Source of the DNA: Bacteroidota bacterium
GTDB taxonomy: Bacteria > Bacteroidota > Ignavibacteria > Tepidaquicellales > Tepidaquicellaceae
Assembly: GCA_018266875.1 (NCBI GenBank)
Contig: JAFDZR010000009.1
Span: forward strand, 1-64,000
Length of the DNA stretch: 64,000 nt
Reading direction: 5' to 3'
Shown here in pieces: positions 3,138 through 14,317 of the stretch; positions within the stretch are counted from its first letter, which is position 1; each line of letters begins with the position of its first letter. The notes beneath the pieces are model-generated. The model was not told where the DNA came from. It did not search any database and saw nothing but the letters and a program-made list of their open reading frames with translations. The position numbers and the translations under genes were made by a program.

Positions 3138-4328
3138 ATGCCATTTTATCATAAATCAGGAAAGATACCTCAGAAGAGGCATACTCAGTTCAGACAGCCG
3201 GACGGTTCCTTATATAAAGAGGAATTACTATCAACAATCGGATTCGACAGTATTTCGACCAATGCTTATCATATTAATTCACCTGCAAAGATCAAGGAAA
3301 TTTCTCCGGATGTGGAGATCATCAGAATAGAAGAATGGAAAGAATCATCTCTGAGACCTTATCATTTCAGGACAAAGCCAATGAAACCCGAAGGTGATGC
3401 ATTCACAGGAAGAAGACCTGTAATGTACAATAACGATGTTGTAATGAGCGTATGCAGAGTAAAGGATCAGATGGAATATTTTTATAAGAACGCATTGTGT
3501 GATGAGGTAATATTTGTTCATGAAGGAAAGGGAACGCTTCAGACAAATCTTGGATATCTGAAATTCCGCGAAGGTGATTATATCGTAATTCCAAGAGGAG
3601 TAATTTATAAACTTGTTCACGAAACAGAAAATGCAAGACTACTTGTCTTCGAATCAAGCGGTCCGATCACAACACCTTCAAGATACAGAAATGAACACGG
3701 ACAACTAATGGAGCATGCGCCATACTGCGAAAGGGACATCAAAGCTCCTGAAGAACTTGTAACCTTTGATGAAAAAGGTGATTTCATAATGAAGATTAAA
3801 AAGGGTGAAAAAGTCGTAACGTTTCATTATGAATTTCATCCTTTCGATATAGTCGGCTGGGACGGATATTATTTCCCGTGGATTTTCAACATTGAGGATT
3901 TCATGCCTATCACCGGAAAGATACATATGCCGCCTCCTATACATCAGACCTTCGCCGCTCCTGGTTTCGTTATCTGCTCGTTCTGTCCGAGACTGCTTGA
4001 TTATCATCCTCAGGCAGTTCCAATTCCTTATAATCACAGCAATCTTGACTCGGATGAAATGCTTTATTACGTTGACGGAAATTTCGCAAGCAGAAAGGGT
4101 ATTGATTTCGCTTCAATAAGTCTTCATCCGAACGGAATTCCTCACGGACCACATCCGGGAACGGTAGAAGCAAATCTCGGGAAAAAGGAAACGCTGGAAA
4201 CTGCAGTTATGATGGATACTTTCAGACCTTTGAAACTCGCTGAATTCGCTTCGGAAGTGAATGATCCGTCATATTATCTCAGCTGGAACAACGATGAGCC
4301 GGTAGAGCTTATCAATGAAGGTCAGTAA
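3138..4328 (+). CDS. hmgA: Homogentisate 1,2-dioxygenase
   Basis: Opens the aromatic ring of homogentisate to maleylacetoacetate, a step in tyrosine and phenylalanine breakdown. The 396-residue protein has the family's cupin layout. The expected non-haem iron ligands are visible as His300, Glu307 and His336, the last within an HPNGIPHGPHPG stretch that also holds a second-shell His330; these correspond to His335, Glu341 and His371 of the human enzyme. The N-terminus MPFYHKSGKIPQKRHTQFR is characteristic of bacterial members. None of the other pathway genes (4-hydroxyphenylpyruvate dioxygenase, fumarylacetoacetase) is in the window, so it looks isolated. The promoter of the first adhesin-like gene starts three bases after its stop codon. 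Confidence 0.93.
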   Translation: MPFYHKSGKIPQKRHTQFRQPDGSLYKEELLSTIGFDSISTNAYHINSPAKIKEISPDVEIIRIEEWKESSLRPYHFRTKPMKPEGDAFTGRRPVMYNNDVVMSVCRVKDQMEYFYKNALCDEVIFVHEGKGTLQTNLGYLKFREGDYIVIPRGVIYKLVHETENARLLVFESSGPITTPSRYRNEHGQLMEHAPYCERDIKAPEELVTFDEKGDFIMKIKKGEKVVTFHYEFHPFDIVGWDGYYFPWIFNIEDFMPITGKIHMPPPIHQTFAAPGFVICSFCPRLLDYHPQAVPIPYNHSNLDSDEMLYYVDGNFASRKGIDFASISLHPNGIPHGPHPGTVEANLGKKETLETAVMMDTFRPLKLAEFASEVNDPSYYLSWNNDEPVELINEGQ

Positions 4329-4486: not shown

Positions 4487-5869
4487 ATGAAAAAGCTTAT
4501 TTTTTCATTTTCAGTTCTTGTTATTTTCTTATTATCCTCCGCATCATACTCTCAATATGGTTTAAGCGATGCAATTGTAACAGGAACTGACAAAGGTAAA
4601 AATGTTACATTTACAGACCCCTACACAAACAATTCAAGAGATGTTTTCGCAGGACTTTTCATCGGCACAGTAGACGGTAATTCTGCAAAGTTTTACTGCG
4701 TGGATATTATGAGAACTATCAGTTTTCCGGATTCCTGCCATAAGGATTCCGCTGTTGCCGATCCGAAGATCGTTTACATTCTCAACAATTACTATCCTTA
4801 CAATCCTCATCCTGCAGGAGAGGAAAATGATCTGAACAAAGAGGTTGCCGCTACACAGCTTGCAATATGGCATTACTCAGACGGCGTTGACGCAAATACA
4901 ATAACCTCAAACTCCATCAAAAACCGGACTCTGGAAATTATCAGCGATGCAGATGCCAACGGTTCATTTACAGAAATTGTAACGACATTGTCAATTGAAC
5001 CTTCGATCAGTCCTGATGACTTTTTTGTCAGAACATTGGATCAGAACGGTGATCCGATCGGCGTGAACAACATTCAGCTTGCAATTTCAGAAGGAACTCT
5101 GAGCACATATTCTGTAAATACAAGTCCTTCCACAGGTGAATCGCCTGATGTTACAGTCAGCGGAACCGGCACAGGCACTATTACCGCTACGGCAGTGTGC
5201 ATTATTCCGCAGGGTGTTACATACACTTGTCCGGGAAGCCAGAGACTTGTAATAGCAGCTCCCGCCGAAGGAGATAAGCAGGCGACAGCGGACTGGGGAG
5301 CCTTGCCTGTGGAATTAACGTCATTTACTTATTCAGTAAACCAGAGAAATGTAACCTTAAGCTGGAGTACATCTTCTGAGACCAACAATTCCGGATTTGA
5401 CATTGAAAGAAACATCTCCGGATCGGAGACCTGGACGAAAGCAGGAAATGTATCAGGTAATGGTACTGTTTCAGAAACAAAGAATTATTCATTTACCGAC
5501 AGGGGTCTGAATACAGGTCAGTATAATTACAGACTGAAGCAGATAGATTATAACGGTAACTTCGAATATTTCAATCTCGGCAGCGAAGTAAACATTTCCT
5601 CGCCGGATAAATACAGCTTAAATCAGAATTATCCGAATCCGTTCAATCCTTCTACTAAGATCAGTTTCAGCATTCCGGTAAGCGGAGTGGTATCACTTAA
5701 GATATATGATATCAGCGGTAAGGAAGTGGCGGAACTGATAAACGGAGAACTCACTGCAGGATTCCACACAGTCAGTTTCAATGCAAACGGATTGACGAGC
5801 GGAATTTATTTCTACAGACTTACTTCGGGAAATTTCACGAAGGTAATGAAAATGTCTTTAATAAAGTAA
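4487..5869 (+). CDS. Thioester-domain (TED/TQXA-like) surface protein with T9SS sorting domain, paralogue 1
   Basis: Predicted cell-surface adhesin of 460 residues. A signal peptide (1-22) is followed by a domain (about 23-150) with FYCVD containing Cys71, an ILNNYYP segment (about 98-104), and ATQLAIWHYSDG containing Gln124. Known Cys-Gln internal thioester domains of Gram-positive adhesins (TED, TQXA) carry this Cys and TQxA-type pattern and bind targets covalently. Residues about 165-270 look like an Ig-like beta domain with a likely disulfide (Cys238, Cys248); 271-365 resemble Fn3; 377-460 are a T9SS type A sorting domain with NYPNPFNP. The start is fixed by the signal peptide and a strong GAAAGGAGAG site 3 bases upstream. 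Thioester formation is inferred, not shown. It is closest to paralogue 2. Confidence 0.8.
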   Translation: MKKLIFSFSVLVIFLLSSASYSQYGLSDAIVTGTDKGKNVTFTDPYTNNSRDVFAGLFIGTVDGNSAKFYCVDIMRTISFPDSCHKDSAVADPKIVYILNNYYPYNPHPAGEENDLNKEVAATQLAIWHYSDGVDANTITSNSIKNRTLEIISDADANGSFTEIVTTLSIEPSISPDDFFVRTLDQNGDPIGVNNIQLAISEGTLSTYSVNTSPSTGESPDVTVSGTGTGTITATAVCIIPQGVTYTCPGSQRLVIAAPAEGDKQATADWGALPVELTSFTYSVNQRNVTLSWSTSSETNNSGFDIERNISGSETWTKAGNVSGNGTVSETKNYSFTDRGLNTGQYNYRLKQIDYNGNFEYFNLGSEVNISSPDKYSLNQNYPNPFNPSTKISFSIPVSGVVSLKIYDISGKEVAELINGELTAGFHTVSFNANGLTSGIYFYRLTSGNFTKVMKMSLIK

Positions 5870-5900
5870 ATTAAAATAAGTTATAATAAACTTATTTATC

Positions 5901-5925
5901 AAAAGTCGGATACAGTCCGCCTTTT
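5901..5925 (+). terminator. Terminator after paralogue 1
   Basis: Arms 5901-5910 and 5916-5925 (AAAAGtCGGA / TCCGcCTTTT, one mismatch) form a hairpin ending in T residues. It is the slightly decayed equivalent of the perfect terminator after paralogue 2, which suggests the two gene cassettes duplicated with their terminators. Bases 5926-6121 beyond it are AT-rich and show nothing else. Confidence 0.65.
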
Positions 5926-6121
5926 GATTTTATAATTTCCATTTTACAAAGATAATTTAACAATGCTGATAATTTACAATGAAATTTCTTCAGAATTCAA
6001 TACTTCACTGTTTTTAATGATATTGCAGCATAAAAACCCAATTATATTGAAATTTTTCATTTTTTCCGGGTAGCCCTTACTATATTCAAACAGATTTACT
6101 TCACATAGTTAATATTGTTTA

Positions 6122-6153
6122 TTTGCAATTAAAATTCATATTTCATAATTTTA
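6122..6153 (+). promoter_or_regulatory. Bacteroidota-type promoter of paralogue 2
   Basis: TTTG at 6122-6125 and TAATTTTA at 6146-6153 with a 20-base spacer. The flanking sequence TAATTTTACACTTAT is shared with the paralogue 3 promoter. Confidence 0.6.
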
Positions 6154-6170
6154 CACTTATTCCCAACACA

Positions 6171-6195
6171 ACTAAACTAAACTAAACTAAACTAA
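6171..6195 (+). repeat. Pentanucleotide repeat (ACTAA)5 in the leader of paralogue 2
   Basis: Five perfect ACTAA copies, followed by degenerate copies up to about 6211. They lie between the promoter and the structured leader, so they should be transcribed. Short tandem repeats of this kind can change copy number by slippage. Confidence 0.85.
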
Positions 6196-6213
6196 ATTAA
6201 CTAACTAAACTTA

Positions 6214-6277
6214 AATCAATTTTTCTGTTTGTTATGATTACCCAAAGATCATTTCAATCTGATCAACAAAATTGATT
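6214..6277 (+). ncRNA. Structured leader of paralogue 2
   Basis: An outer stem of 10 bp (6214-6223 with 6268-6277) encloses the conserved hairpin with arms 6234-6239 and 6247-6252 around the loop ACCCAAA (6240-6246). A competing pairing (GATCA 6247-6251 with TGATC 6260-6264) is possible. Stem bases differ from paralogue 1 while the loop is identical. Confidence 0.5.
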
Positions 6278-6320
6278 AATGGAAGAATTGATTTTCTCAC
6301 TTGAAAGGAGAGAAAAAAAA

Positions 6321-7706
6321 ATGAAGAAGCTTATTCTTTGTTTGAGCATTATTTTTTTTGCAGCATTTCATTCAGTTTCATATTCCCAGTATGGACTGAG
6401 TGATGCAATTGTAACAAGCGTCGCACAGGGCGGTAACATTACAATTACCGATCCTCACACAAACAATTCCAGAACAGTATTTGCCGGATTAATAAACGGA
6501 ACAGTGGACGGAAATATTACAAGGTTCTACTGCATTGATATCGCAAGATATTTAAACTTCCCGGACTCCTGTCACAAGGATTCAGCTATTGCAAATGCAA
6601 GGATTGTTTATATCTTAAACAATTATTATCCCTACAATCCGAATCCGGCAGGAATGCTTGCCAACTTAAATGAGGAAGTATCAGCTACTCAGCTTGCCAT
6701 TTGGCATTACTCTGACGGTGTCGATGCAAACACCGAAACTTCAAATGCTACAATAAAAAGCAGAGCGCTCGCTATAATTGCTGATGCTGAGGCTAACGGA
6801 GGATTTACAAATGTTATAACTACATTTTCAATTGAGCCGTCATTAAACCCGGATGATTTTTATGTGAAGACTCTTGATCAGAACGGTAATCCGATAGCTG
6901 TTAATAACATTCAGCTGACAATAACAGAAGGTACATTAAGCACTTATACCGTAAGCACTTCCGCCGGCGGAATATCACCTGATGTTACAGTTTCCGGAAC
7001 CGGTACAGGCACTATTACTGCCACGGCAATGTGCATGATCCCGCAGGGAGTTACATATGCATGTCCACCGAATTCACAGAGACTGGTCATTGCAAGTCCG
7101 ACTATCGGTAGAAAACAGGCTATAGCCGACTGGGGAGCTTTACCGGTTGAACTGTCTGCTTTTACTTCAGTAATTAACGACAGAAGCGTTACTCTTAACT
7201 GGACAACTTCATCTGAGATCAACAATTCAGGATTTGATATAGAAAGAAAGATCTCCGGTTCAGAAAGCTGGTCCAGAGTCGGAAATGTTTCAGGCAACGG
7301 TACTACTTCCGAAGCAAAAAATTATTCTTTTACAGACAGGAATCTGAATGCAGGTCAGTATAATTACAGACTGAAGCAGATCGACTATAACGGTAATTAT
7401 GAATATTTCAATCTCGGCAGTGAAGTTAATATTGCTTCACCCGGGGAATACAGTTTAAATCAGAATTATCCGAATCCGTTCAATCCTTCTACTAAGATAA
7501 GTTTCAGTATTCCGGTAAGCGGCGAGGTATCCCTGAAGATATTTGATATCAGCGGAAAGGAAGTTGCTGAACTTATAAACGGTGAGCTCAATGCCGGTTT
7601 CCATACAGTCAGCTTTAATGCTAACGGACTGACAAGCGGAATTTATTTCTACAGACTTACTTCGGGAAATTTCACGAAGGTAATGAAAATGTCACTTATT
7701 AAATAA
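6321..7706 (+). CDS. Thioester-domain (TED/TQXA-like) surface protein with T9SS sorting domain, paralogue 2
   Basis: A 461-residue sister of paralogue 1 with the same domain order: signal peptide (1-22), thioester-type domain with Cys71 (FYCID) and Gln124 (ATQLAIWHY), Ig-like domain with a Cys pair (AMC and YAC), Fn3-like domain beginning GALPVELSAF, and T9SS sorting domain with NYPNPFNPSTKISFSIP. I chose the start at 6321 rather than the in-frame ATG at 6279: 6321 begins the MKKL signal peptide and is preceded by GAAAGGAGAG (6303-6312), whereas 6279 would add 14 residues and lies at the end of the leader stem. The sorting domain is almost identical to that of paralogue 1 (V/E, Y/F and T/N changes only). 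Covalent binding is inferred from the motif alone. Confidence 0.8.
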   Translation: MKKLILCLSIIFFAAFHSVSYSQYGLSDAIVTSVAQGGNITITDPHTNNSRTVFAGLINGTVDGNITRFYCIDIARYLNFPDSCHKDSAIANARIVYILNNYYPYNPNPAGMLANLNEEVSATQLAIWHYSDGVDANTETSNATIKSRALAIIADAEANGGFTNVITTFSIEPSLNPDDFYVKTLDQNGNPIAVNNIQLTITEGTLSTYTVSTSAGGISPDVTVSGTGTGTITATAMCMIPQGVTYACPPNSQRLVIASPTIGRKQAIADWGALPVELSAFTSVINDRSVTLNWTTSSEINNSGFDIERKISGSESWSRVGNVSGNGTTSEAKNYSFTDRNLNAGQYNYRLKQIDYNGNYEYFNLGSEVNIASPGEYSLNQNYPNPFNPSTKISFSIPVSGEVSLKIFDISGKEVAELINGELNAGFHTVSFNANGLTSGIYFYRLTSGNFTKVMKMSLIK

Positions 7707-7726
7707 AACGGTCAATCTTAAATTTC

Positions 7727-7753
7727 AAAAGGCGGATATATTCCGCCTTTTTT
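7727..7753 (+). terminator. Terminator after paralogue 2
   Basis: Perfect hairpin: AAAAGGCGGA (7727-7736) pairs with TCCGCCTTTT (from 7742), running into six T residues. Nothing further is visible from 7754 to 7923. Confidence 0.9.
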
Positions 7754-7923
7754 ATATATTATGTGTGTATTTACAGTTGTTACACGTTTATTTGCTATCT
7801 TTTAAACTTCACAATTTTTCTTTACAGGTTAAAATATTGTTTATTTTTAAAATGATTTGAAGCTTATCCGGCATCTTTAAAGAAAAAGCTTGTATTTTTA
7901 CTTCACAAAACTCAATTTATTTA

Positions 7924-7955
7924 TTTGCTGTTTTTTATTAAAACCATTAATTTTA
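7924..7955 (+). promoter_or_regulatory. Bacteroidota-type promoter of paralogue 3
   Basis: TTTG at 7924-7927, a 20-base spacer and TAATTTTA at 7948-7955, with the same ACACTTAT downstream flank as the paralogue 2 promoter. Confidence 0.6.
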
Positions 7956-7990
7956 CACTTATCAAAATAACTAAATATAAAATTTAAAAG

Positions 7991-8071
7991 GACCAATTTT
8001 TCTGATTGAAATTACTCTGAAAAGTAATACTCAAGCTGATCACCCCAAAAGATCAGAAAGAAAAATTGGTC
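7991..8071 (+). ncRNA. Structured leader of paralogue 3
   Basis: A 13-bp perfect outer stem (7991-8003 with 8059-8071) encloses two hairpins: arms 8011-8016 and 8023-8028, then arms CTGATC 8036-8041 and GATCAG 8051-8056 around the loop ACCCCAAAA (8042-8050). The two-hairpin layout matches paralogue 1 although the stem sequences differ, which is what a conserved RNA fold would give. The ribosome-binding site follows at 8086-8095. Confidence 0.55.
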
Positions 8072-8098
8072 TTAAATTTCTCAATGAAAGGAGAGACC

Positions 8099-9499
8099 AT
8101 GAAGAAGATCATTCTTCTGTTTGCTTTATTTTTTACAGTTCCAGCGGGCAGCTTGTTTGCCCAGTACACTCCAGCCTCAGTAGAAGGCATTTCACCAAAA
8201 AGAAACATTACGTTCATTGATCCAATTACAAATCAGTCAGAAACAAGAACGGTTGGTTTGTGTTACGGAAAGATCTACAATCCAAATTCCGGTCCTGATG
8301 TTTGTTTTTACAGTCTTGATGTCAGGAAAGCCGCTTCAAACTGCCTGCCTAATTATGATTATATAGATGATTCTGCAAGTGTTTTACCTTCAAGAGTCTG
8401 CTATATTCTTTACAATTATTATCCCGCAGCAACCGGTCCGGGACAACTTGGCAATCTTGCTAACGAATCCGGAGCTATCCAGGCGGTTATATGGCACTAC
8501 ATGAACGGTCTTGATCTTAACACTATTACAAGCACTACTGTAAGGAACAGAGCGCTTGCAATTCAAACATATGTGGACGCAAACGGAAATTTCTGTCTTG
8601 TGCCTGAAGTTTTAAAAATAAGTCCTGATCTCGACCCGGATTCGTTTATTATTGAAACAAAGACTGATGCAGGGCACGGTGTTGCTGTAAACGGAATCCA
8701 GTTATCGATCTCCGAAGGTTCCTTAAGCACTTACACTGTTAATACAAACTCTTCAGGATTTTCCGATCCGGTACAGGTAATAGGAACCGGTACGGGAACA
8801 ATTTCAGCATACTCAGACAACATTAATCTGCCTAAAGGAAGAATTTTCAAACACATTACAGATGAATGCCCTAAAGTTGTACTCGCATGCTCAGGTCCGG
8901 GCGCACTGAGAGTTTATTCAGACTGGGGAGCTCTTCCGGTAGAACTTTCTTCATTCACATCAGCTGTCAGCAGTAACAACGTAACGCTTAACTGGACTAC
9001 TGTTTCAGAGCTGAATAATTCCGGATTCAACATTGAAAGAAAATCCTCAACAGAAGCTGAATGGAAACTGGCCGGTAATGTCAGCGGAAACGGAACCACT
9101 ACAAATATTTCAGAATATTCTTTCACGGACAGAAACGTAGCTTCAGGCAGATACATTTACAGACTGAAGCAGATTGACTTTAACGGTAATTTTGAATATT
9201 TCAATCTGAATAACGAAATTGAAGTCGGAACACCTTCCAAATTCGCTCTGAGTCAGAATTATCCGAATCCGTTTAATCCTGAGACAAAGATTAAGTACGA
9301 ATTGCCGGTAAACGGTTATGTATCTATAAAAGTCTTTGACAATTCAGGCAAGGAAGTAGCTGTACTCGTTAACGGAAATGTACCAGCAGGTTATCATACT
9401 GTAAGTTTCAAGGCTTCGAATCTCTCAAGCGGTATTTATTTCTACAGACTTGAAACAGCCGGATTTGTTAAAGTCATGAAGATGGCTCTTGTAAAATAA
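8099..9499 (+). CDS. Thioester-domain-like surface protein with T9SS sorting domain, paralogue 3 (thioester Cys replaced by Ser)
   Basis: A 466-residue member of the array: signal peptide (1-22), degenerate thioester-type domain, Ig-like domain with Cys residues (DEC, LAC), Fn3-like domain and T9SS sorting domain. The glutamine is kept (Gln128 in GAIQAVIWHY), but the residue matching the thioester cysteine is Ser72 (FYSLD, codon AGT at 8312-8314), one base change from TGT. Cys69 lies three residues earlier, and Cys55, Cys82 and Cys101 are unique to this copy. It may have lost thioester chemistry, moved it to Cys69, or be stabilised by disulfides instead. The start at 8099 follows GAAAGGAGAG (8086-8095); the upstream in-frame ATG at 8066 lies inside the leader stem. 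Confidence 0.75.
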   Translation: MKKIILLFALFFTVPAGSLFAQYTPASVEGISPKRNITFIDPITNQSETRTVGLCYGKIYNPNSGPDVCFYSLDVRKAASNCLPNYDYIDDSASVLPSRVCYILYNYYPAATGPGQLGNLANESGAIQAVIWHYMNGLDLNTITSTTVRNRALAIQTYVDANGNFCLVPEVLKISPDLDPDSFIIETKTDAGHGVAVNGIQLSISEGSLSTYTVNTNSSGFSDPVQVIGTGTGTISAYSDNINLPKGRIFKHITDECPKVVLACSGPGALRVYSDWGALPVELSSFTSAVSSNNVTLNWTTVSELNNSGFNIERKSSTEAEWKLAGNVSGNGTTTNISEYSFTDRNVASGRYIYRLKQIDFNGNFEYFNLNNEIEVGTPSKFALSQNYPNPFNPETKIKYELPVNGYVSIKVFDNSGKEVAVLVNGNVPAGYHTVSFKASNLSSGIYFYRLETAGFVKVMKMALVK

Positions 9500-9523
9500 T
9501 TTTTTATTGTGTGTTATATTAAG

Positions 9524-9558
9524 CAGCCGGTTGCTGATGCAGCCGGCTGTTTTTTTTT
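9524..9558 (+). terminator. Terminator after paralogue 3
   Basis: CAGCCGG (9524-9530) pairs with CCGGCTG (9543-9549), followed by nine T residues. It is closely related to the terminator after paralogue 4. Bases 9559-9711 hold nothing recognisable. Confidence 0.9.
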
Positions 9559-9711
9559 AATCTTCATTTTATAAGCACAGTATAAAACATCTCTAATTCC
9601 TTGTCAGTAATTTGATAATTTATTTTTTTAGTAAATCAATTCAGAATTGATTTCTCAGCCCACAGCAAAGTCATTGTAACGTGTGCTGAGTTTTTAGAAC
9701 AAATATTTTTT

Positions 9712-9743
9712 GTTGCATTTGTAATAAAAAAGATTTAATTTTG
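9712..9743 (+). promoter_or_regulatory. Bacteroidota-type promoter of paralogue 4
   Basis: TAATTTTG (9736-9743) is a perfect TAnnTTTG element; GTTG at 9712-9715 sits exactly 20 bases upstream in the -33 position. Confidence 0.55.
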
Positions 9744-9764
9744 TAAAAAATCATTCCTGATTAA

Positions 9765-9827
9765 TATTATACCCCAAAGTAATTTTAATAAAGGAAATTA
9801 TATATTTGTTTTTAATGGGGTATAATA
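9765..9827 (+). ncRNA. Structured leader of paralogue 4
   Basis: A local hairpin has arms ATTAT 9766-9770 and GTAAT 9779-9783 (one G-T pair) and loop ACCCCAAA (9771-9778). The same CCCC can instead join an 11-bp long-range stem (9765-9775 with 9817-9827). The two pairings exclude each other. Bases 9771-9787 (ACCCCAAAGTAATTTTA) are identical in the paralogue 5 leader. It ends 141 bases before the start codon; the space between shows nothing else. Confidence 0.55.
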
Positions 9828-9968
9828 CAATTCAAATTCTCTCATTTTCGTTTAATTGCCCCGGTTAATTAATTTACACAAGATAGTATTCAGTACTCAA
9901 CATTTATTCCCATAATTATTTATACTTGATTTAAAACCTAACATATTAATTAACTTAAAATTAAAAAA

Positions 9969-11390
9969 ATGAAAAAACTTTTTCTCTCTTTATGTTTGAT
10001 TCTCACTTTATTTGCAAGTGAGTCTTTTTCACAGTTCGGCAACAGCAGGGCAATAGTAGAAAATTATTCTGCTTCTACATTTATCGGAAGATTCGCAACG
10101 TTTCCCAATGGAAACTGCGGGTCTATAGACTCTGGAGCTTACGTTGGGGTAATTCCATGTAACCTTGACGGTGTAGCAAATACTCCTTTTTATTGTCTCG
10201 ATCTGTGTACTCCCATCAGCATTGGTGATACAGTAAAGGATTCGGCTTCAACGATTCCACAGGCAATTTACATTACAGACAATTATTATCCGGAAAAAAC
10301 TTCTTATCCGGGAAAACTTGCCAACAACAATGATGAGGCATGTGCAGTACAATTTGCAATCTGGCATTTCAGAAACAATCTTGATCCTAATTCAATTATT
10401 ACAGTTGACGCTACAACGACTGCAACAATAATTGCAAGAGCCAATGCAATAATTGCGGATGTTAATCTGAACGGCGGTTCAAGTGTTCACGTAAGTACAA
10501 TTGAGATAAAACCTGCAGTTGACCCTGATAAATTCTACATAGAAACTAAGGATACCGCCAACAATCCAATTGCAGTCAGCAACATAACTCTTACTTTGTC
10601 GGGCAGCGGAAGTTTAAGCACATACAACGTAAGTACAAATGGCAGCGGTGTCTCTCCTGACGTAACTGTTACAGGAGCTTCAAACGGTGATGTAATAACC
10701 GCATCAGCAACCGTCCAGATCCCGGGAGGCGTGACTTACTCAGGATTATCTACTGTACTGCAGCTGCTTGTTCTTGGAAAAACAACTACAGGTATTAGAA
10801 CAGCCCAGACCACATGGGGAGCATTGCCAGTTGAATTAAGCAGCTTCACTGCAAGTATCTCCGGCAGAGATATTACATTAAACTGGTCTACTTCTAAAGA
10901 GATTAACAATTCAGGTTTTGAAATTGAAAGATATAAGAACGGAATTGATGTTTGGGAAAGAGTAGGATATGTAAGTGGTCATGGTAATACTTCAAGTCCG
11001 CAGAACTATTCGTTTACAAACAGAAATCTCACTTCCGGAATATATACTTACAGACTGAAACAGATAGATTACAATGGTAATTATGAATATCATAATCTCA
11101 ACGGTGAGGTTGTTGTTGGTGTTCCTAATGATTTTGAATTAAGTCAGAATTATCCTAATCCTTTCAATCCTGAAACAAAGATCAGTTATCAGATTCCCAG
11201 AGACGCTTATGTATCTTTGAAGGTATATAACAATTCAGGCAAGGAAGTGGCTACATTAGTAAACAACAGTGTATCCGCAGGATATTATACTGTAAACTTC
11301 AATGCAGCAAATCTTTCAAGCGGAATATATTTCTATAAACTTGAGACTGAAGGATTTACAAAAGTCATGAAAATGGCAGTTGTAAAATAA
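9969..11390 (+). CDS. Thioester-domain (TED/TQXA-like) surface protein with T9SS sorting domain, paralogue 4
   Basis: A 473-residue member of the array. A signal peptide (1-22) precedes a thioester-type domain with Cys76 (FYCLDLC) and Gln128 (CAVQFAIWHF). Extra cysteines at 50 and 80, spaced 30 apart, recur in paralogue 5 at 45 and 75 and may form a disulfide; Cys125 is three residues before the glutamine. An Ig-like domain without the Cys pair of paralogues 1-3 follows, then an Fn3-like domain starting GALPVELSSF and a T9SS sorting domain. The last 85 residues are identical to those of paralogue 5. There is no Shine-Dalgarno site, unlike paralogues 1-3. The start at 9969 directly precedes the signal peptide. 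Confidence 0.8.
   Translation: MKKLFLSLCLILTLFASESFSQFGNSRAIVENYSASTFIGRFATFPNGNCGSIDSGAYVGVIPCNLDGVANTPFYCLDLCTPISIGDTVKDSASTIPQAIYITDNYYPEKTSYPGKLANNNDEACAVQFAIWHFRNNLDPNSIITVDATTTATIIARANAIIADVNLNGGSSVHVSTIEIKPAVDPDKFYIETKDTANNPIAVSNITLTLSGSGSLSTYNVSTNGSGVSPDVTVTGASNGDVITASATVQIPGGVTYSGLSTVLQLLVLGKTTTGIRTAQTTWGALPVELSSFTASISGRDITLNWSTSKEINNSGFEIERYKNGIDVWERVGYVSGHGNTSSPQNYSFTNRNLTSGIYTYRLKQIDYNGNYEYHNLNGEVVVGVPNDFELSQNYPNPFNPETKISYQIPRDAYVSLKVYNNSGKEVATLVNNSVSAGYYTVNFNAANLSSGIYFYKLETEGFTKVMKMAVVK
11133..11390 (+). repeat. C-terminal coding repeat, copy in paralogue 4
   Basis: These 258 bases encode the same 85 residues as 12986-13243; the copies differ at 13 codons, all synonymous. They cover the T9SS sorting domain. 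Confidence 0.9.
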
Positions 11391-11414
11391 TTTCTTCAAT
11401 TTAAAAAAATTAAA

Positions 11415-11448
11415 CAGCCGGTTGCATCAGCAGCCGGCTTTTTTTTTC
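11415..11448 (+). terminator. Terminator after paralogue 4
   Basis: AGCCGG (11416-11421) pairs with CCGGCT (11434-11439), followed by a T run. It resembles the terminator after paralogue 3. Nothing else is visible from 11449 to 11608. Confidence 0.88.
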
Positions 11449-11608
11449 AACTTGTTTTGTATGTTTAGCTTACCTGAATCTCTAGGGTATGTATGCCAAT
11501 AATAATGATCTAATATTTTCCTGATAAATTTTTTTAAATAAACATTTCGGTTATTACAATATTCAGAAATTAAATATTCAAAAGTCTGAATGCATCAGTA
11601 ATTATTAA

Positions 11609-11640
11609 TTTGACATTGATATTAAATTACAATAGTTTTG
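11609..11640 (+). promoter_or_regulatory. Bacteroidota-type promoter of paralogue 5
   Basis: TTTG (11609-11612), a 20-base spacer and TAGTTTTG (11633-11640) match TTTG/TAnnTTTG perfectly. Confidence 0.65.
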
Positions 11641-11661
11641 AATAAATACTTTCCTCATAAG

Positions 11662-11730
11662 GTTATACCCCAAAGTAATTTTAGGAGTGAATATTAAATT
11701 ATTTTCTATAATTCAACAATAAGGGGTATA
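11662..11730 (+). ncRNA. Structured leader of paralogue 5
   Basis: A local hairpin has arms GTTAT 11662-11666 and GTAAT 11675-11679 around loop ACCCCAAA (11667-11674). The alternative long-range stem TATACCCC (11664-11671) with GGGGTATA (11723-11730) uses the same bases. This is the same two-state arrangement as paralogue 4. The element ends 124 bases before the start codon. Confidence 0.55.
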
Positions 11731-11854
11731 CTTTTAAAATTTCCAATAAATTTATATACGATACTGATTAAACTAATTATATAAAGTTTGATTTATATAA
11801 TTAAGTTTTATTTTAATATATAATAATATTTTTTCCACTAACTAAAAACAAAAA

Positions 11855-13243
11855 ATGAAAAAATTAATTTACCTTTCAGTTCTGTTTGTTCTATTCTTAA
11901 CCGGAAGAACATTCTCACAGGGAGACAGCAGATTATTATTTGATACTCCTCCCAGCACAACACTTATTTATACATTCTTCGATCCCTGTACAGCATCAAA
12001 TGTCAACGCTTACGTTGGACTTCTGCAGGGAACAGTTGACGGTGTCCCAAACAAACTCTTTTATTGTGTTGACCTCTGCACCGATGTTGCTCCGGGAGAC
12101 ACATTAAAGGATTCTGCATATTTAGCACCTAAGATATTGTATGTTCTGAATACTTATTATCCTAAAGTCCCGACCTATGCAGGAAGACTTGCAAACGAAT
12201 ATCAGGAAGCAGCTGCAATCCAGTTTGCATTATGGAATCTTGCTGACGGATTTGATCTGAGTTTATATGTACCTGATGTAACCATCAGAGACAGAGCCAT
12301 AGCCATAGCAAATGACGCCAACACAAACGGCGGAAGTTATGTTGTTGACGCTACATTTACAATTGAGCCGGGAATGAATCCGGATGACTTTTATATAAAA
12401 ACAATGGATGGTGATGGAAATCCGGAAGCCGTTGATTCAATATTCCTTTCAATATCCAACGGTACATTGAGTACATATCTTACAAGCACAGACGGTACGG
12501 GAGAATCTGCACCGATAACAGTATCGGGAGCTACCAGCGGAGCGGTGATTACAGCTCAAGGCACGGTATCTCTACCTTCTGGCGCAGCATACGTTGGTCT
12601 GACTGTCAGAAAACAGAGGCTTGGTGTTCCTGTTTCATTCAAAGCCTTTACTTCCACGAGCACCACATACGGAGCTTTACCGGTAGAATTGAGTTCATTC
12701 AATGCTACCGTAAATAATCAGGAAGTACTCCTGACATGGAGAACAACCTCTGAAACAAATAATGCCGGTTTTGACATTGAAAGAAAATCTACAGGAACTG
12801 AAGCATGGCAGAAAGTCGGATTCATGGCAGGAAACGGAACAACAAGCACTCCGAAAATATTTTTATACACCGATAAGAATGTACCAGCAGGAAATTACAA
12901 TTACAGACTGAAACAAATCGATTTCAACGGTAACTTTGAATATCACAATCTCAACAGTGAAGTTGTAGTTGGTATTCCGGGTAACTTTGAATTAAGTCAG
13001 AATTATCCGAATCCTTTCAACCCTGAAACAAAGATCAGTTACCAGATCCCGAGAGACGCTTATGTATCTCTTAAGGTATACAACAATTCAGGTAAGGAAG
13101 TGGCTACACTTGTAAACAACAGTGTATCTGCAGGATATTATACTGTAAACTTCAATGCAGCAAATCTTTCAAGTGGAATATATTTCTATAAACTTGAAAC
13201 AGAAGGATTTACAAAAGTCATGAAAATGGCAGTTGTAAAATAA
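11855..13243 (+). CDS. Thioester-domain (TED/TQXA-like) surface protein with T9SS sorting domain, paralogue 5
   Basis: The last member of the array, 462 residues. A signal peptide (1-22) is followed by a thioester-type domain with Cys71 (FYCVDLC), a YVLNTYYP segment and Gln123 (AAIQFALWNLADG). Cys45 and Cys75 mirror the pair in paralogue 4. Then come an Ig-like domain, an Fn3-like domain (YGALPVELSSF) and the T9SS sorting domain identical to that of paralogue 4. Its thioester-type domain differs strongly from that of paralogue 4 despite the identical C-terminus, so the binding end and the export end have evolved at different rates. No Shine-Dalgarno site is present; the start is set by the signal peptide. 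Confidence 0.8.
   Translation: MKKLIYLSVLFVLFLTGRTFSQGDSRLLFDTPPSTTLIYTFFDPCTASNVNAYVGLLQGTVDGVPNKLFYCVDLCTDVAPGDTLKDSAYLAPKILYVLNTYYPKVPTYAGRLANEYQEAAAIQFALWNLADGFDLSLYVPDVTIRDRAIAIANDANTNGGSYVVDATFTIEPGMNPDDFYIKTMDGDGNPEAVDSIFLSISNGTLSTYLTSTDGTGESAPITVSGATSGAVITAQGTVSLPSGAAYVGLTVRKQRLGVPVSFKAFTSTSTTYGALPVELSSFNATVNNQEVLLTWRTTSETNNAGFDIERKSTGTEAWQKVGFMAGNGTTSTPKIFLYTDKNVPAGNYNYRLKQIDFNGNFEYHNLNSEVVVGIPGNFELSQNYPNPFNPETKISYQIPRDAYVSLKVYNNSGKEVATLVNNSVSAGYYTVNFNAANLSSGIYFYKLETEGFTKVMKMAVVK
12986..13243 (+). repeat. C-terminal coding repeat, copy in paralogue 5
   Basis: Partner of 11133-11390: identical protein, 13 synonymous codon differences, no amino-acid change. Confidence 0.9.
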
Positions 13244-13261
13244 TCCTGTAACAGATATAAA

Positions 13262-13294
13262 AAAAAACGGGTCTTAAAAAGACCCGTTTTTTTT
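13262..13294. terminator. Bidirectional terminator between paralogue 5 and gpsA
   Basis: AAACGGGTCTT pairs with AAGACCCGTTT around a short A-rich loop, with T runs on both sides when read from either strand. It can end transcription of paralogue 5 (+) and of the gpsA operon (-). Confidence 0.92.
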
Positions 13295-13318: not shown

Positions 13319-14317
13319 TCAAAACTCTTCTTTTAAATTCCTTGACATAAGTATCTCAGTTGCTTTACTCGGTTTCTTATTTCTGTAAAGAATATCATAG
13401 ACCTGATGAGTGATCGGTAATTCAATATTCAGTTTCTTTGAAAGTTCATAAGCCGCTTTTGTAGTCGCCACTCCTTCGGCAACCATCTTTGTTTCCGAAA
13501 GAATATCCTTGAGCTTTTTGCCTTCCCCGAGCTGAATGCCCACGCTCCTGTTCCTTGAATATCTGGAACCGCAGGTTACTATCAGATCCCCTATTCCCGC
13601 AAGCCCGAAAAATGTTTCCTTCTTTGAGTTCATTTTAAGTCCGAGCTTCATTATTTCGTTCATTCCTCTTGTCATAATTGCCGCTTTGGTATTATCGCCA
13701 TAACCTGTTCCGTCTGAAATTCCCGCAGCTATTGCAATTACATTTTTTAATGCGCCGCATACTTCGGTACCTATAAGGTCATCATTTGAATAAACCCTGA
13801 AATATTTATTTGAAAAAACTTTCTGAACGACGGATGATTTGGATTTATCATATGAAGAACATACAACGGCAGTAGGTATTTTTCTCGAGACTTCTTCTGC
13901 ATGGGAAGGTCCTGAAAGGCATAAAATATTTTCTTTCTTTACATTCTCAAAAATATCAGTAAGAATATCTGAGACAAGAAGATTTGTTTTCATTTCAATT
14001 CCTTTTGAAACGCTGACGATAAGTGAGTTTTTGAAGTCAAAATCTTTCAGTTCGGACAAACTGCTTCTGATGAACTGAGTCGGAGTTGCAATTACTATAA
14101 GAGCTTTATTCTTAACTGCGGAGCCAAGATCATTGGTGATTTTAATTTCATCAGGGATATTAATCTTAGGAAGGTAATAAAAATTCTCTCTGTGTTTTTC
14201 AAGGGTTGCGGCATATTCTGAATTGAACTCCCAGAGAGTTACATTATTCCTGTTTTCATTAAGAAGAATGGCAAGAGTTGTACCCCATCCGCCTGCGCCG
14301 AGGACAGCGATATTCAT
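13319..14317 (-). CDS. gpsA: NAD(P)-dependent glycerol-3-phosphate dehydrogenase
   Basis: Reduces dihydroxyacetone phosphate to sn-glycerol-3-phosphate for phospholipid synthesis. The 332 residues begin with a Rossmann dinucleotide-binding motif GAGGWGT (residues 7-13); the catalytic lysine is Lys191 in GALKNVIAIAAG, and the GDNTKAA segment (about 207-213) is conserved. Length is typical. plsY, which acylates the product, lies 12 bases upstream in the same operon, so the pair provides lysophosphatidate. The gene ends at the bidirectional terminator shared with the adhesin array. Confidence 0.95.
   Translation of the reverse strand: MNIAVLGAGGWGTTLAILLNENRNNVTLWEFNSEYAATLEKHRENFYYLPKINIPDEIKITNDLGSAVKNKALIVIATPTQFIRSSLSELKDFDFKNSLIVSVSKGIEMKTNLLVSDILTDIFENVKKENILCLSGPSHAEEVSRKIPTAVVCSSYDKSKSSVVQKVFSNKYFRVYSNDDLIGTEVCGALKNVIAIAAGISDGTGYGDNTKAAIMTRGMNEIMKLGLKMNSKKETFFGLAGIGDLIVTCGSRYSRNRSVGIQLGEGKKLKDILSETKMVAEGVATTKAAYELSKKLNIELPITHQVYDILYRNKKPSKATEILMSRNLKEEF

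What the first reader, a model, noticed from the sequence alone, without database searches (positions are those of the whole stretch)
4487..13243. Tandem array of five thioester-type (TED/TQXA) adhesin paralogues carrying T9SS sorting domains
Seen directly: five adjacent genes with the same architecture (signal peptide, domain with FYC[VIL]D and a [TIV]QxA-type IW glutamine motif 52-56 residues later, Ig-like, Fn3-like, NYPNPFNP sorting domain). Known: the Cys...TQxA pattern with a VLNxxYP segment between is characteristic of internal Cys-Gln thioester domains of Gram-positive surface proteins, which attach covalently to host or surface amines. Inferred: a Gram-negative lineage has joined this warhead to T9SS export, giving a multi-copy covalent adhesion system. 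To my knowledge thioester adhesins as T9SS cargo are not an established system.
Basis: partly seen in the sequence, partly recalled or inferred. Interest (0 to 1): 0.87.

Follow-up and report, generated by a model that had tools for sequence, protein, structure and literature searches.

The report
Thioester adhesins exported by T9SS
A Gram-negative bacterium carries a row of five related surface proteins whose heads match the 'chemical harpoon' domains that Gram-positive bacteria use to bond covalently to surfaces, here joined to a different export tail; one of the five belongs to an old lineage that has lost the reactive pair of residues and gained new cysteines.

Summary
Five adjacent genes (4487-13243) encode signal peptide, Pfam thioester domain (TED, PF08341, all five above cut-off), Fn3-like segment and type A T9SS tail; the genome has SprA, PorV and PorU. 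Corrections: (1) the TQxA glutamine (Gln124) is not the bond partner. Published TEDs bond through a later strand-Q glutamine; here that is Gln252 in gene 1, 181 residues after Cys71 and beyond an inserted Ig domain, the class II layout. A confident AlphaFold model matches solved class II TEDs first. (2) Gene 3 is not intact: Cys is Ser and the later Gln is Pro. Among 93 related TEDs, 85 of 86 with the Cys keep this Gln and none of 7 without it do; all 93 keep the TQxA Gln. The 7 form one clade; 6 share five cysteines seen in no intact TED. The array is a conserved locus in its family; TED occurs in 83 of 391 genomes of the class, and 48 of 56 complete proteins scanned pair it with a T9SS tail. 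Best reading: surface-displayed covalent adhesins, four armed and one repurposed. No paper found describes TEDs as T9SS cargo; reactivity and target are untested.

The parts
4487..5869 (+). Gene 1 (460 aa): signal peptide to Ser22, class II TED 23-270, Fn3-like segment, T9SS type A tail. Predicted bond Cys71 (4697-4699) with Gln252 (5240-5242)
   Evidence: Pfam TED E 2.5e-12 and Por_Secre_tail E 8.1e-10; model pLDDT 91.8, best PDB match 6fwv; codons
6321..7706 (+). Gene 2 (461 aa from ATG 6321): same build. Predicted bond Cys71 (6531-6533) with Gln253 (7077-7079)
   Evidence: Pfam TED E 3.3e-12; codons
8099..9499 (+). Gene 3 (466 aa from ATG 8099): TED without the bond residues, Ser72 (8312-8314) and Pro258 (8870-8872); seven cysteines (55, 69, 82, 101, 166, 257, 264)
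   Evidence: Pfam TED E 1.5e-5; cysteine census; model pLDDT 96.0, best PDB matches 6fwy and 6fwv
9969..11390 (+). Gene 4 (473 aa): predicted bond Cys76 (10194-10196) with Gln265 (10761-10763)
   Evidence: Pfam TED E 4.6e-8; codons
11855..13243 (+). Gene 5 (462 aa): predicted bond Cys71 (12065-12067) with Gln254 (12614-12616)
   Evidence: Pfam TED E 2.1e-7; codons
5907..5919 (+). Terminator-like hairpin after gene 1 (weak: 5 pairs)
7727..7751 (+). Terminator-like hairpin after gene 2
9521..9552 (+). Terminator-like hairpin after gene 3
11416..11439 (+). Terminator-like hairpin after gene 4
13260..13294 (.). Symmetric terminator-like hairpin between gene 5 and gpsA (listed on the - strand; A and T runs on both sides)

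Best explanation
The five genes encode surface-displayed class II thioester-domain adhesins that use the type IX secretion system where Gram-positive TED adhesins use a sortase anchor. Sec exports each protein; the TED folds and (inferred) forms a Cys-Gln thioester between the strand-C Cys (71/71/76/71) and the strand-Q Gln (252/253/265/254) in genes 1, 2, 4 and 5; the C-terminal domain directs the protein through SprA with PorV, and PorU (inferred) cuts the tail and fixes the protein to the outer surface; the exposed thioester (inferred) bonds to an amine on a target surface, giving irreversible attachment. Gene 3 belongs to an old paralogous lineage that lost both bond residues together and gained cysteines, probably a disulfide-stabilised binder that does not bond covalently. 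Heads diverge while export tails are partly homogenised.
For: TED and T9SS-tail profiles over cut-off in all five. AlphaFold model of gene 1 (pLDDT 91.8) has class II TED protein 6fwv as first PDB match and 6fwy sixth; the gene 3 TED alone has only class II TED chains under E 1e-3 and class I TEDs next. N-lobe profile aligns our YC with that of Cpa and 6fwv. 85 of 86 TEDs with the Cys keep the late Gln; 0 of 7 without it do; the TQxA Gln is kept in all 93. Cys-to-Gln spacing 179-202, near 188 in pLS20 p34, 171 in SaTIE and 204 in EfmTIE86. SprA, PorV and PorU present. Long relatives combine TED with stalk domains and a further adhesive domain.
Against: No reactivity, localisation or binding data. 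The joint loss of Cys and Gln is one event on the tree, so it is one observation, not seven. TM-scores to solved TEDs are modest (0.3-0.5). Only 13 of 29 genomes of the family have TEDs, so the function is dispensable for the lineage.
Confidence: 0.75

Rival explanations
1. One reading: a thioester between Cys71 and the TQxA glutamine (Gln124).
For: TQxA is the motif named in the NCBIfam domain TIGR03934, matched by genes 1 and 2; its Gln is invariant.
Against: In studied TEDs the partner is a late-strand Gln, and mutating the TQxA Gln does not stop bond formation (PMC4450167, PMC6194298). All seven TEDs without the Cys keep the TQxA Gln and lack the late one.
Confidence: 0.02
2. TED fold kept as a plain binding head: the Cys and Gln are present but the bond is not formed or is quenched before the protein reaches the surface, so adhesion is not covalent.
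For: No chemistry is shown; the protein must pass the periplasm and SprA, where amines could consume a thioester; the gene 3 lineage shows that the fold persists without the pair.
Against: 85 of 86 TEDs with the Cys keep the matching late Gln across Ignavibacteria and in aligned Arthrobacter and Polyangiaceae TEDs.
Confidence: 0.15
3. Same chemistry, but the target is the community's own material (matrix polymers or neighbouring cells), so this is a biofilm cross-linker rather than an adhesin for hosts or foreign surfaces.
For: A class II TED adhesin of B. subtilis plasmid pLS20 serves contact between bacteria (PMC8092201); relatives are largely metagenome-assembled genomes, several with isolate names that suggest groundwater, sludge or fen; copy number at the locus varies from two to seven.
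Against: No data on the partner; equally compatible with binding particles or other species.
Confidence: 0.35
4. Gene 3 and its clade are decaying copies rather than a lineage with a function.
For: Both bond residues are gone.
Against: The clade spans five or more genomes with intact frames, keeps the fold and the T9SS tail, and six members share five cysteines absent from all 86 intact TEDs.
Confidence: 0.08

Closest known systems
Class II TED (TIE) proteins of Gram-positives: BaTIE (6fwv), SaTIE, EfmTIE86 (6fwy), pLS20 p34
   Same: Fold match, Cys in YC motif, TQxxPhiW motif, inserted Ig domain before the bond-forming Gln strand, N-terminal placement, similar Cys-Gln spacing
   Different: T9SS tail instead of LPXTG; diderm host; short Fn3-like stem instead of CnaB stalks; inserted Ig domain resembles Big_1/invasin domains by sequence; one paralogue lineage lacks the bond residues
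Class I TEDs: SfbI/FbaB, Cpa (5a0l, 5dcq, 4c0z)
   Same: Shared N-lobe motifs and weaker fold matches
   Different: Class I lacks the inserted beta-sandwich (PMC6194298)
TED adhesins of Actinobacteria (Arthrobacter, Microbacterium LPXTG proteins)
   Same: Cys, TQxA and late Gln align in Arthrobacter
   Different: LPXTG-type C-termini; very distant branch in the tree
T9SS adhesins RemA and SprB of Flavobacterium
   Same: T9SS export to the cell surface; RemA carries a type A tail (PMC10202324)
   Different: Gliding adhesins; no thioester domain is mentioned for them in the review read

Membership tests
Thioester domain, Pfam PF08341 | Profile match over gathering score | tested here: met
   All five, 25.8-47.5 bits against 22
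Thioester domain, Pfam PF08341 | Bond-forming Cys in [YFL]C-Phi-zeta | tested here: met
   Genes 1, 2, 4, 5 FYC[VIL]D; gene 3 FYSLD fails
Thioester domain, Pfam PF08341 | Bond-forming late-strand Gln | tested here: met
   Genes 1, 2, 4, 5; gene 3 has Pro in its place
Thioester domain, Pfam PF08341 | Covalent Cys-Gln thioester (17 Da loss, amine adducts) | not testable with these tools
   Needs protein chemistry
Class II TED | Ig-type insertion between helical lobe and strand Q | tested here: met
   Helices then a beta-rich insertion before the Gln strand in both models; solved class II TEDs rank above class I; the inserted stretch matches intimin/invasin domains
Sortase-anchored TIE protein | C-terminal LPXTG anchor | tested here: not met
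   Tails are Por_Secre_tail/TIGR04183; no LPXTG in the sequences
T9SS cargo, type A tail | TIGR04183 / PF18962 at the C-terminus over cut-off | tested here: met
   All five
T9SS cargo, type A tail | T9SS machinery in the genome | tested here: met
   SprA 923.7 bits joined, PorV family six over cut-off, PorU 926 bits; GldK/L/M/N not searched
T9SS cargo, type A tail | Secretion, tail removal and surface attachment | not testable with these tools
   Needs cells

The most novel reading that the evidence does not exclude
Ignavibacteria have a surface system that is covalent at both ends: a PorU-type transpeptidase bonds the tail to the outer membrane and a thioester bonds the head to the target, reaching by another route the sortase-plus-thioester bridge of Gram-positives; within it, one subfamily has exchanged the reactive thioester for a new cysteine set and so turned a one-shot harpoon into a non-covalent binder.
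Probability: 0.4. Interest if true: 0.8.

Novelty: new variant of a known kind. Interest (0 to 1): 0.62.

Why it matters
The 2015 survey that defined bacterial TEDs found them only in Gram-positives (PMC4450167). A widespread T9SS-exported version would extend covalent adhesion to double-membraned bacteria of the environment, raise the question of how a reactive thioester survives the periplasm and passage through SprA, and offer short heads for study. The lineage that lost Cys and Gln together is a natural control for what the bond contributes, and supports the late Gln, not the TQxA Gln, as the partner.

Tried and rejected
Model coordinates were not among the files, so no distance was measured. 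The viral fold search gave only Fn3/Ig-type matches. The independence test for joint loss of Cys and Gln had one pair and no power. Recent transfer from Actinobacteria: not supported, since the Arthrobacter proteins sit on a branch of length 2.4. A shared upstream block: none clear beyond the Shine-Dalgarno of genes 1-3. Chance resemblance: rejected by curated cut-offs, 0 of 14 control genomes and the fold matches. One alignment put the late Gln of gene 5 and one relative two columns off; in another it is in register, so both were counted as having it.

Full report
OBSERVATION. Five genes in tandem on the + strand, between a homogentisate-dioxygenase-like gene (3138-4328) and gpsA (13319-14317, minus strand), encode proteins of 460-473 aa with 48-79% identity to the first. 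Start codons of genes 2 and 3 are better placed at 6321 and 8099, behind GAAAGGAGAGA. All five match Pfam TED and the T9SS sorting domain over curated cut-offs, and the assembly holds no other TED. Each gene is followed within 17-38 bases by a terminator-like hairpin; nine are found in the stretch against about five expected by chance, so it is their placement that speaks. They look like five separate units, not an operon (inference).

CORRECTION 1, THE BOND PARTNER. [quoted passage not shown] the Gln and Trp of TQxxPhiW are not essential (PMC4450167, PMC6194298). In class II TEDs an Ig beta-sandwich is inserted before that strand. The window proteins show this layout: after the helical lobe comes a segment that matches intimin/invasin Ig domains by sequence, then a strand with SQRLVI (genes 1, 2), LQLLVL (gene 4) or KQRLGV (gene 5). 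The spacing is 181-189 residues in the window's four intact genes and 179-202 in relatives, close to 188 in pLS20 p34 (PMC8092201), 171 in SaTIE and 204 in EfmTIE86 (from residue numbers). So the predicted bond in gene 1 is Cys71-Gln252, not Cys71-Gln124.

CORRECTION 2, GENE 3. Gene 3 has Ser in place of the Cys and Pro in place of the late Gln. Among 93 non-redundant TEDs from related genomes, 86 have the Cys; 85 of these have the late Gln (two of them shifted by two columns in one automatic alignment, in register in another) and one has Lys. Seven lack the Cys and none has the Gln there. The TQxA Gln is present in all 93. A plain Fisher test gives 8e-10, but the seven form one clade (SH-aLRT 99), so this is one joint loss that has been kept. 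Six of the seven share five cysteines found at those columns in none of the 86: at -20, -3 and +10 alignment columns from the lost Cys and at -1 and +6 around the lost Gln. The gene 3 domain is still predicted as a class II TED (pLDDT 96, pTM 0.90; only 6fwy and 6fwv chains under E 1e-3). Reading: an old paralogue repurposed, probably held by disulfides near where others have the thioester. The pairing is inference; five is an odd number, so at least one of them is free or paired otherwise.

STRUCTURE. The model of mature gene 1 has mean pLDDT 91.8. Its first PDB matches are two chains of 6fwv (E 1.8e-10, 4.2e-10); 6fwy is sixth. TM-scores are modest (0.3-0.5) and rmsd is high, which may reflect a different hinge between lobes (inference). 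A profile of the N-terminal lobe aligns our YC with that of Cpa and of 6fwv and our QxAIW with their TQ motif.

EXPORT. SprA, six PorV-family proteins and PorU are in the genome over cut-off. SprA is in all 29 genomes of the family, TED in 13 of them. GldK/L/M/N were not searched.

DISTRIBUTION AND LOCUS. A scan of species genomes gave about 50 Ignavibacteria-group loci, plus one Anaerolineae, one Polyangiaceae and several Arthrobacter/Microbacterium loci. TED occurs in 83 of 391 genomes of the class (53 of 188 genera); in a draw of 395 genomes from the phylum, 33 of the 34 with a match belong to the class and one weak match lies outside it. Of 56 complete proteins scanned, 48 have TED plus Por_Secre_tail; the eight without it equal in number the Actinobacteria, Anaerolineae and Polyangiaceae entries in that set, whose C-termini are LPXTG-type or otherwise not T9SS tails. 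Outside the window's family the proteins are mostly long (about 490-2260 aa) and one to three per genome; the four long ones examined carry DUF11, an ice-binding-like adhesive domain and in two cases SdrD_B. Within the family, short copies sit in arrays of two to seven, and in five other genomes these lie next to the same hmgA-like gene, in four of them with trxB. The tree separates the gene 1/2, gene 4, gene 5 and gene 3 lineages across genomes, so the array is older than these genera (inference). Genes 4 and 5 are 92-97% identical in the last 85 codons and 51-57% over the head, which suggests conversion of tails with diverging heads.

MECHANISM. Shown by computation: domain make-up, class II fold, residue pair, export tail and machinery. 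Inferred: bond formation, surface exposure, PorU processing and anchoring, bonding to amines on a target, loss of that ability in gene 3. The target is unknown.

KNOWN AND NEW. TED adhesins are known from Gram-positives; the 2015 search found them there only, and the fibrillar-adhesin survey names Firmicutes and Actinobacteria for TED. Paper searches found no account of TEDs as T9SS cargo; the library holds open-licence papers only, and automatic database annotation may already list such proteins. I file this as a new variant of a known kind.

Noticed in passing
window 9969-13243: Genes 4 and 5 are 92-97% identical at the nucleotide level in the last 85 codons but 51-57% over the head; genes 1 and 2 show the same trend (83-89% against 63-73%). 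This suggests gene conversion of the export tail.
   Followed up: partly
L007:5475-6872: A TED that keeps the Cys but has Lys in place of the late Gln (KKRLVIA), the only such case among 93; it could not form the usual thioester.
   Followed up: no
L117:3971-7020: Two adjacent TED genes of the Cys-less clade on one 13 kb contig, one of them (also L087:559-2046) with Phe instead of Ser and without the extra shared cysteines.
   Followed up: partly
L043:3734-5485: A contig labelled Anaerolineae encodes a TED protein with Big_1 and GEVED domains and a membrane-anchor-like C-terminus ending in RRR, not a T9SS tail.
   Followed up: no
L060:3647-5962: A Polyangiaceae contig encodes a TED with Cys and late Gln followed by DUF4215 repeats, another case outside Gram-positives and without a T9SS tail.
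   Followed up: no
L024:3836-8647, L025:3869-8440, L021:3875-7156, L048:3932-6202: Long relatives join TED, DUF11 (and SdrD_B in two), an ice-binding-like adhesive domain (pAdhesive_15) and a T9SS tail, so two different adhesive heads on one protein.
   Followed up: partly
window 4553, 6387, 8162, 10032, 11918: All five proteins would begin with Gln after signal peptide cleavage, in line with the Bacteroidetes Q-rule (pyroglutamate), for which a high value is also reported in Ignavibacterium album (PMC5837995).
   Followed up: partly
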